In this document: in pieces, positions 43,901 through 46,900 of the stretch
How positions within the stretch are numbered: the stretch's first letter is position 1
How the letters are laid out: each line of letters starts with the position of its first letter
From: Branchiostoma floridae
Taxonomy: Eukaryota; Chordata; Leptocardii; Amphioxiformes; Branchiostomatidae
NCBI RefSeq assembly: GCF_000003815.2
Contig: NC_049987.1
Span: 23,055,661 to 23,119,660 of the forward strand
Length of the DNA: 64,000 bases
Reading direction: 5' to 3'
Translations under genes and position numbers: made by a program
Notes under the pieces: model-generated
What the model saw: only the letters and a program-made list of their open reading frames with translations
Databases searched by the model: none
What the model was told of the DNA's origin: nothing

Positions 43901-46900
43901 AGGGTGGATGCCATCAGGCCTGGTGGGTGTGACATGATTGACATCTGTCCATCATCCATCGATTTTGTTGAAAAGTGTCTTGGTCTGAAATTTTAGTGTT
44001 GACATTAATTCTGAGTCTAACATTTCAGAATTGTTTCTGATTGTATACTGAGGTTGCAGGAAGTAAAAGCACACTTCCCCGTTACACAGTCCCACTGTTT
44101 TCCTGATCACATTCGGCATAGGTGGTCATATGATTTTGATGCAGTAGAGTTTTTAAGCTGGCTGCGATAGAACCCACCACTGACAAGAATCTAAGACAGC
44201 CTTTTCTGTAACAAGACAGGTGAATTTTGTAACAGTAAGCATGACTCTTATGAGAATGCTCAGTTTTGAACAACAATATGTGCGATGTTTGTGACCACAC
44301 ATTATGTTACCTTAAAGTTACACATACCACTGTTGACTGTTAATAACTCTTGTTTTCCCAGGTGATGTGGTAGTGGGCGTGGCCTCCTCTGGTGTCCATA
44401 GTAACGGGTTCAGCCTGGTCAGGAGGGTAGTGGACGCTGCCGGCCTGACTTTCCAGTCCTCGTCACCCTTCAGTAGTAACCAGTCTATAGGTGGGTACCA
44501 GTCCTCGTCACCCTTCAGTAGTAACCAGTCTATAGGTGGGTACCAGTCCTCCTCACCCTTCAGTAGTAACCAGTCTATAGGTGAGTACCAGTCCTCATCA
44601 CCCTTCAGTAGTAACCAGATAATAGGTGGGTACCAGTCCTCATCACCCTTCAGTAGTAACCAGTCTATAGGTGGGTACCAGTCCTCCTCACCCTTCAGTA
44701 GTAACCAGTCTATAGGTGAGTACCAGTCTTCCTCACCCTTCAGTAGTAACCAGTCTATAGGTGGGTACCAGTCCTCGTCACCCTTCAGTAGTAACCAGTC
44801 TATAGGTGAGTACCAGTCCTCCTCACCCTTCAGTAGTAACCAGTCTATAGGTGTGTACCAGTCCTCCTCACCCTTCAGTAGTAACCAGTCTATAGGTGGT
44901 ACCAGTCCTCCTCACCCTTCAGTAGTAACCAGTCTATAGGTGGGTACCAGTCCTCCTCACCCTTCAGTAGTAACCAGTCTATAGGTGGGTACCAGTCCTC
45001 CTCACCCTTCAGTAGTAACCAGTCTATAGGTGGGTACCAGTCCTCCTCACCCTTCAGTAGTAACCAGTCTATAGGTGGGTACCAGTCCTCCTCACCCTTC
45101 AGTAGTAACCAGTCTATAGGTGGGTACCAGTCCTCATCACCCTTCAGTAGTAACCAGTCTATAGGTGGGTACCAGTCCTCCTCACCCTTCAGTAGTAACC
45201 AGTCTATAGGTGGGTACCAGTCCTCGTCACCCTTCAGTAGTAACCAGTCTATAGGTGGGTACCAGTCCTCCTCACCCTTCAGTAGTAACTAGTCTATAGG
45301 TGGGTACCAGTCCTCGTCACCCTTCAGTAGTAACCAGTCTATAGGTGGGTACCAGTTCTCCTCACCCTTCAGTAGTAACCAGACAATAGGTGGGTACCAC
45401 CAGTCCTCATCACCCTTCAGTAGTAACCAGTCTATAGGTGGGTACCACCAGTCCTCATCACCCTTCAGTAGTAACCAGTCTATAGGTGGGTACCACCAGT
45501 CCTCCTCACCCTTCAGTAGTAACCAGTCTATAGGTGGGTACCAGTCCTCGTCACCCTTCAGTAGTAACCAGTCTATAGGTGGGTACCAGTCCTCACCCTT
45601 CAGTAGTAACCAGTCTATAGGTGGGTACCAGTCCTCCTCACCCTTCAGTAGTNNNNNNNNNNNNNNNNNNNNNNNNNNNNNNNNNNNNNNNNNNNNNNNN
45701 NNNNNNNNNNNNNNNNNNNNNNNNNNNNNNNNNNNNNNNNNNNNNNNNNNNNNNNNNNNNNNNNNNNNNNNNNNNNNNNNNNNNATAGGTGGGTACTACC
45801 AGTCCTCCTCACCCTTCAGTAGTAACCAGTCTATAGGTGGGTACCACCAGTCCTCGTCACCCTTCTGTAGTAACCAGTCTATAGGTGGGTACCAGTCCTC
45901 ATCACCCTTCAGTAGTAACCAGTCTATAGGTGGGTACCAGTCCTCACCCTTCAGTAGTAACCAGTCTATAGGTGGGTACCAGTCCTCCTCACTCTTCAGT
46001 AGTAACCAGTCTATAGGTGAGTACCAGTCCTCCTCACCCTTCAGTAGTAACCAGTCTATAGGTGGGTACCAGTCCTCGTCACCCTTCAGTAGTAACCAGT
46101 CTATAGGTGGGTACCAGTCCTCCTCACTCTTCAGTTGTAACCAGTCTATAGGTGGGTACCAGTCCTCCTCACCCTTCAGTAGTAACCAGTCTATAGGTGG
46201 GTACCAGTCCTCGTCATCCTTCAGTAGTAACCAGTCTATAGGTGGGTACCCGTCGTCATCACCCTTCAGTAGTAACCAGTCTATAGGTGAGTACCAGTCC
46301 TCCTCATCCTTCAGTAGTAACCAGTCTATAGGTGAGTACCAGTCCTCCTCACCCTTCAGTAGTAACCAGTCTATAGGTGGGTACCAGTCCTCGTCACCCT
46401 TCAGTAGTAACCAGTCTATAGGTGGGTACCAGTCCTCGTCACCGGGTAGTAACCAGGTCTATAGGGTGGGGTACCAGTCCTCCTCACCCTTCAGTAGTAA
46501 CCAGTCTATAGGTGGGTACCAGTCCTCCTCACCCTTCAGTAGTAACCAGTCTATAGGTGGGTACCATCACCCTTCAGTAGTAACCAGTCTATAGGTGGGT
46601 ACCAGTCCTCGTCACCCTTCAGTAGTAACCAGTCTATAGGTGGGTAGCAGTCCTCCTCACCCTTCAGTAGTAACCAGTCTATAGGTGGGTAGCAGTCCTC
46701 ATCATCCTTCAGTAGTAACCAGTCTATAGGTGGGTACCAGTCCTCGTCACCCTTCAGTAGTAACCAGTCTATAGGTGGGTAGCAGTCCTCATCACCCTTC
46801 AGTAGTAACCAGTCTATAGGTGGGTATACTACATACACATATATACATTTAATATACATTTTTTATTCAATTGGTTGGGGTGTTACAGTGTCTGCTATTT

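What the first reader, a model, noticed from the sequence alone, without database searches (positions are those of the whole stretch)
44454..46826. GART exon 14 donor multiplied about 50 times as an in-frame 45-bp minisatellite
The unit is exactly the last 37 bases of a coding exon plus 8 bases of intron with the donor site. The unit length is divisible by three, and ten consecutive donors are in frame with each other and in phase with exon 15. Donor choice alone could give proteins with 1 to 10 copies of a 15-aa Ser/Gln-rich loop in the AIRS domain. Three of the early units have the stronger GTGAGT donor. The one-unit form gives a protein of normal length (1020 aa). I know of no GART gene with such an array.
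Basis: partly seen in the sequence, partly recalled or inferred. Interest (0 to 1): 0.88.

Follow-up and report, generated by a model that had tools for sequence, protein, structure and literature searches.

The report
Known lancelet splice-site repeat in GART
A lancelet purine-making gene carries about fifty back-to-back copies of one exon end with its splice signal; this is a large example of a repeat type already described in lancelets, and it most likely sits harmlessly inside the intron.

Summary
The array is real: 44453-46826, period 45 bp, 49 complete exon-end/donor junctions plus one beside an internal 132-N gap. The unit is the last 38 bases of GART coding exon 14 plus 7 intron bases. 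Donors 1-10 are in frame with exon 15; the eleventh breaks the frame. Only the first gives the loop length seen in human AIRS (2v9y). Tandem repeats across exon-intron boundaries are a named lancelet feature, 'mirages' (PMC3087553, PMC3902484; passages read), reported not to disturb splicing. It is not isolated: all 6 duplication clusters detected in GART from ATG to stop cover a splice boundary (1.1 expected, p about 1e-5); a neighbouring gene has one and one 10-kb sample has several, but three chaperonin-gene pieces have none, and 77 clusters over 264 kb show no donor-motif excess. A coding role for the extra units is unsupported: first spacing is divisible by three in 4 of 9 donor-side families, exonic changes look neutral, and 8 of 38 later units carry stops or frame breaks. 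No RNA was available. Verdict: unusually large new member of a known kind; the boundary bias is the interesting part.

The parts
44362..44490 (+). GART coding exon 14 (AIRS domain), ending ...CTATAG; its last 38 bases are repeat unit 1
   Evidence: gene model and translation; alignment to human AIRS 2v9y with a one-residue gap in the loop
44453..46826 (+). 45-bp tandem array (mirage minisatellite): each unit is the exon 14 end plus 7 intron bases with the donor
   Evidence: TRF, junction count 49 plus one at 45789; all 20 matches of the whole-assembly DNA search lie inside it
44491..44896 (+). first bases of the ten mutually in-frame donors: 44491, 44536, 44581, 44626, 44671, 44716, 44761, 44806, 44851, 44896
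45653..45784 (.). assembly gap (132 N) inside the array; true copy number unknown
47192..47551 (+). GART coding exon 15, in phase with donors 1-10
39531..40211 (+). second GART donor-side mirage: exon 10 end plus intron; donors at 39557, 39728, 39901, 40072 (spacings 171, 173, 171)
41558..42174 (+). GART acceptor-side mirage: start of exon 11 with its acceptor, three copies; the last is contiguous with the rest of the exon
42731..43099 (+). GART acceptor-side mirage: start of exon 12 with its acceptor, three copies; the last is contiguous with the rest of the exon
47466..47752 (+). decayed donor-side duplication of the exon 15 end (spacing 162)
49508..49642 (+). acceptor-side duplication of the exon 18 start (spacing 74); the extra copy has an in-frame stop
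16148..16718 (-). mirage in a sulfotransferase-like gene: exon end ...AKFILTLRNPTER with donor at 16680 and 13 further AGAAAGGT junctions, spaced 35-43 bp
   Evidence: gene identity weak: Pfam Sulfotransfer_3 E 0.0076, 17 bits, under the 27-bit cut-off; no PDB match

Best explanation
It is a lancelet 'mirage' minisatellite. A 45-base segment straddling the exon 14 donor was duplicated in tandem, and the array then grew, probably by slippage or unequal exchange (inferred). Because each unit holds a complete donor, the first copy still ends the real exon; if the spliceosome uses that first donor, all other units leave with the intron and the protein is unchanged (inferred; normal splicing is reported for other lancelet mirages). 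The array is therefore tolerated rather than functional, and its in-frame period is coincidence.
For: Anatomy fits the published description (PMC3087553; PMC3902484). The first-donor product has the loop length of the human enzyme to within one residue. Of 38 later units examined 8 carry stops or frame breaks, and exonic changes in the copies look neutral (5 synonymous of 14, 3.9 expected, 45 of 48 later units used). The same kind of duplication is found at five other GART boundaries, in a neighbouring gene and repeatedly in L014, one of 20 arbitrary 10-kb pieces. Donor-side first spacings are divisible by three in 4 of 9 families.
Against: No RNA data. Donors 3, 6 and 8 (GTGAGT) are predicted to pair with U1 slightly better than donor 1 (-10.3 against -9.5 kcal/mol). 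Local folding does not single out donor 1: its opening cost is 6.95 kcal/mol, within the 5.1-8.2 of the 21 array donors computed, while the 18 other GART donors cost 1.0-4.5 and 94 control AGGT sites have median 3.2 and 90th percentile 6.0. Units 2-10 happen to be free of stops and frame breaks.
Confidence: 0.82

Rival explanations
1. Donor choice along the array yields a ladder of AIRS-loop isoforms with 1 to 10 copies of a 15-residue Ser/Gln-rich repeat.
For: Ten donors in frame and in phase with exon 15; three early GTGAGT donors; the insertion falls in a loop where the lancelet and human sequences need a gap.
Against: Spacing divisible by three is not unusual among these repeats; no significant excess of synonymous change in the array; absence of disabling changes in units 2-10 is not significant; published mirages are reported to splice normally.
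Confidence: 0.08
2. Tandem duplication in lancelet genes is actively biased towards exon-intron boundaries (for example through a transcription- or splicing-linked break and repair process), and the GART array is one product. This does not exclude the best explanation for what the array does.
For: 6 of 6 detected clusters in GART cover a boundary (1.08 expected, p=1.4e-5) and 5 of 11 in the L014 gene (2.2 expected, p=0.023) (p-values assume independent random placement).
Against: No donor-motif enrichment over 77 clusters in 264 kb (16 against 13.7, sd 4.0, at threshold 7; none at 8, 9 or 10, with a donor matrix typed from recall); no cluster in three chaperonin-gene pieces, 10.3 kb; detection favours copies of exons, because the real exon is held constant by selection; L014 exons were annotated by hand after I had seen the repeats; exons of the other 19 pieces were not annotated; a gapped search adds one GART repeat off the boundaries.
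Confidence: 0.3
3. Assembly artefact: a short real repeat inflated by misassembly.
For: An N gap lies inside the array; PMC3087553 reports one mirage that appears aberrantly assembled in the draft genome.
Against: Units carry many distinct substitutions and length variants, and only 13 of 49 match the consensus over 45 bases, which simple misassembly would not create; similar repeats occur elsewhere in the same genome.
Confidence: 0.07

Closest known systems
Amphioxus 'mirage' minisatellites (Adh3, globins BflGb6 and BflGb9, PGBD5; retinol dehydrogenase, presenilin and troponin C loci as cited in the papers)
   Same: Tandem repeat spanning an exon-intron boundary, splice signal in the units, outermost copy belongs to the real exon, lancelet-like genome
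   Different: About 50 copies here against 2-7 in the cases whose numbers I saw (globin BflGb6 and PGBD5; Adh3 copy numbers not seen); another gene; open in frame through ten donors
Coding or intronic VNTRs such as mucin repeats (general knowledge)
   Same: Tandem array with possible length polymorphism
   Different: Those lie wholly inside an exon or an intron; here each unit carries a splice junction
[quoted passage not shown] PMC3087553 Figure 7 legend)
   Same: Duplication that copies splice signals
   Different: No new intron is evident in the exon 14 region; the exon keeps one intron on this side

Membership tests
Amphioxus mirage minisatellite | Tandem repeat spanning an exon-intron boundary | tested here: met
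   38 exonic + 7 intronic bases per unit
Amphioxus mirage minisatellite | Units contain AG/GT splice signals | tested here: met
   49 junctions counted, GTGGGT or close variants
Amphioxus mirage minisatellite | Occurs in a cephalochordate genome | tested here: inconclusive
Amphioxus mirage minisatellite | Regular splicing of the mRNA is not disturbed | not testable with these tools
   No transcripts available; suggested by Adh3 data and globin RT-PCR in PMC3087553
Amphioxus mirage minisatellite | Length instability between haplotypes or cells | not testable with these tools
   One assembled haplotype; no second copy found in the assembly
Trifunctional GART gene | GARS, AIRS and GART domains in one gene | tested here: met
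   PDB matches to all three human domains; Pfam AIRS and AIRS_C

The most novel reading that the evidence does not exclude
In lancelets, duplication is steered to exon ends, and mirage copies are at times used or renewed as coding sequence, so that arrays such as this one are a standing supply of alternative splice sites and protein-length variants; in GART a minority of transcripts use donors 2-10 and carry extra 15-residue AIRS-loop repeats.
Probability: 0.1. Interest if true: 0.75.

Novelty: new member of a known kind. Interest (0 to 1): 0.38.

Why it matters
As a single array it adds a large example, with ten donors in frame, to a small published list, and a natural test of how a spliceosome picks one donor among about fifty near-identical ones. 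The wider point is that some genes here carry several such duplications precisely at splice boundaries; a genome-wide count would show whether that is a mutational bias, which would bear on intron gain.

Tried and rejected
Donor-motif enrichment in duplicated units over the whole sample: none (77 clusters, 264 kb). That two chaperonin matches sharing a reported 1003-aa open frame hid an in-frame array: rejected; L029 shows no such array, only four short TRF repeats scoring 45-83. That RNA structure exposes only the first donor: rejected (fold of the first three units z +0.59). That selection keeps units 2-10 open: not significant. The scan for bacterial-type promoters and terminators is uninformative for an animal gene. 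One search compared 20 copies with their exons pairwise (57 synonymous differences per 263 sites, 44 nonsynonymous per 895), but it counts shared changes repeatedly and reads the x5 exon in a wrong frame, so I rely instead. Papers: the listings showed no genome-wide survey of mirages; the two mirage papers do not contain the word GART. The original Adh3 paper is not held: one search used a DOI that I recalled wrongly, another the right identifier; I saw it only as a reference entry.

Full report
Observation. The array is present and far beyond chance. Tandem Repeats Finder gives period 45 at 44453-45652 and 45797-46826, separated by 132 N. A junction count gives 49 exon-end/donor junctions, and one further donor at 45789 abuts the N run. 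A DNA search of the whole assembly returned 20 matches, all inside this array, so no dispersed satellite was seen (its counts are lower bounds).

The gene. Twenty coding exons were placed by eye from splice signals and open frames. The protein read from exon 2 on matches all three human GART domains in the PDB and Pfam AIRS and AIRS_C. The one-unit form aligns to the human AIRS domain 2v9y with a single-residue gap in the loop encoded by the exon 14 end, so the single-donor product has a normal length there. A DNAJC28-like gene lies next door on the opposite strand (PF09350 E 9.5e-23, PF00226 E 7.5e-10). Coding exon 1 as assembled has a one-base frame break.

Frame. Donors 1-10 each join exon 15 in phase and give open products; donor 11 follows a 44-bp unit and breaks the frame. 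Units 2-10 have 0 of 9 stops or frame breaks, later units 8 of 38 (47 of 48 inter-donor units examined; the one across the N gap was left out; Fisher p=0.32). In the 38-base exonic part, 5 of 14 distinct changes are synonymous against 3.9 expected after matching mutation types (45 of 48 later units used; the one beside the gap and two with indels were left out). The array thus looks neutral. Nine donor-side families were compared: GART exons 10, 14 and 15, the sulfotransferase-like gene, and five in L014. The first spacing is divisible by three in four (E10 171, E14 45, E15 162, x5 120), about what chance gives. Two of these are not strict: E10 spacings are 171, 173, 171, and the E15 copy has decayed with gaps.

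Donor choice. Predicted U1 pairing is -9.5 kcal/mol for the common GTGGGT donor and -10.3 for GTGAGT. Local RNA folding buries the array's donors more than other GART donors: 5.1-8.2 kcal/mol for 21 array donors including the first, against 1.0-4.5 for the 18 other GART donors and a median of 3.2 (90th percentile 6.0, maximum 9.8) for 94 control AGGT sites. The overall fold of the first three units is unremarkable (z +0.59). Nothing computed here singles out donor 1, so first-donor use is inferred from published mirages and from the protein length.

Known kind. [quoted passage not shown] PMC3902484 (passages) reports 60-bp repeats (2 or 7 copies by source) and 108-bp repeats (3 or 6) overlapping PGBD5 exons and splice sites, and cites Adh and troponin C. 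The present array meets the structural definition; splicing and instability could not be tested here.

Not alone. An ungapped self-comparison of GART from ATG to stop found six duplication clusters, each covering an exon boundary: donor sides of exons 10, 14 and 15 and acceptor sides of exons 11, 12 and 18 (expected 1.08, p=1.4e-5 under independent random placement). A gapped BLAST self-comparison lists one weaker repeat (73% identity, intron 1) that covers no boundary, and does not list the exon 18 copy; taking both together it is six of seven. In L014, one of 20 arbitrary 10-kb pieces, a gene with coiled-coil-like sequence has 5 of 11 clusters on boundaries (expected 2.2, p=0.023), and a sixth (x5 donor) failed only the four-base margin. 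Its exons were annotated by hand after I had seen the repeats, and the exons of the other 19 pieces were not annotated. A sulfotransferase-like gene in the window has another array. Against generality: over 77 clusters in 264 kb there is no donor-motif enrichment (16 against 13.7, sd 4.0), and three chaperonin-gene pieces (10.3 kb) have no cluster.

Unexplained. Pooling seven families, 35 of 67 distinct changes in the exonic part of copies are synonymous against 18.7 expected (p=3e-6), driven by L014 x9 (9 of 15), the GART 3' flank copies (8 of 12) and exon 11 (5 of 7). An eighth family (x1, one nonsynonymous change) was left out of the pool, and the two-copy families were not pooled. The families were chosen by hand, changes were counted against a consensus, and repeated copying of an evolving exon could contribute, so I do not read this as proof of coding use. 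The exon 14 array does not share the excess.

Conclusion. An unusually large mirage minisatellite at the GART exon 14 donor, most likely spliced out whole after the first donor. Known in kind, new as an instance; the boundary bias is the part worth a genome-wide test.

Noticed in passing
L014 (G000:C6:1000001-1010000), minus strand: A gene with coiled-coil-like sequence and repeated boundary duplications in 10 kb, including 12.8 copies of a 152-bp unit with an exon end and donor, and six extra copies of an acceptor-side unit.
   Followed up: partly
39557-41200: Reading exon 10 into intron 10 ends at [11 protein letters not shown] (stop at 39582), and four AATAAA signals lie in the intron, the one at 40892 followed by a GU-rich stretch: a candidate GARS-only transcript like those known (recalled) in other animals; the exon 10 donor there is itself repeated.
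   Followed up: partly
51352-52430: Partial copies of the end of the last coding exon lie in the 3' flank (four compared), with more synonymous differences than expected.
   Followed up: partly
31981-32123: One-base frame break in GART coding exon 1 of this assembly; cause unknown.
   Followed up: no
26589-29452: DNAJC28-like gene on the minus strand beside GART, divergently transcribed; the two are neighbours in human too (recalled).
   Followed up: no
mirage families in L014, GART and the sulfotransferase-like gene: Excess of synonymous differences in supposedly unused copies (35 of 67, 18.7 expected), not shared by the exon 14 array.
   Followed up: partly
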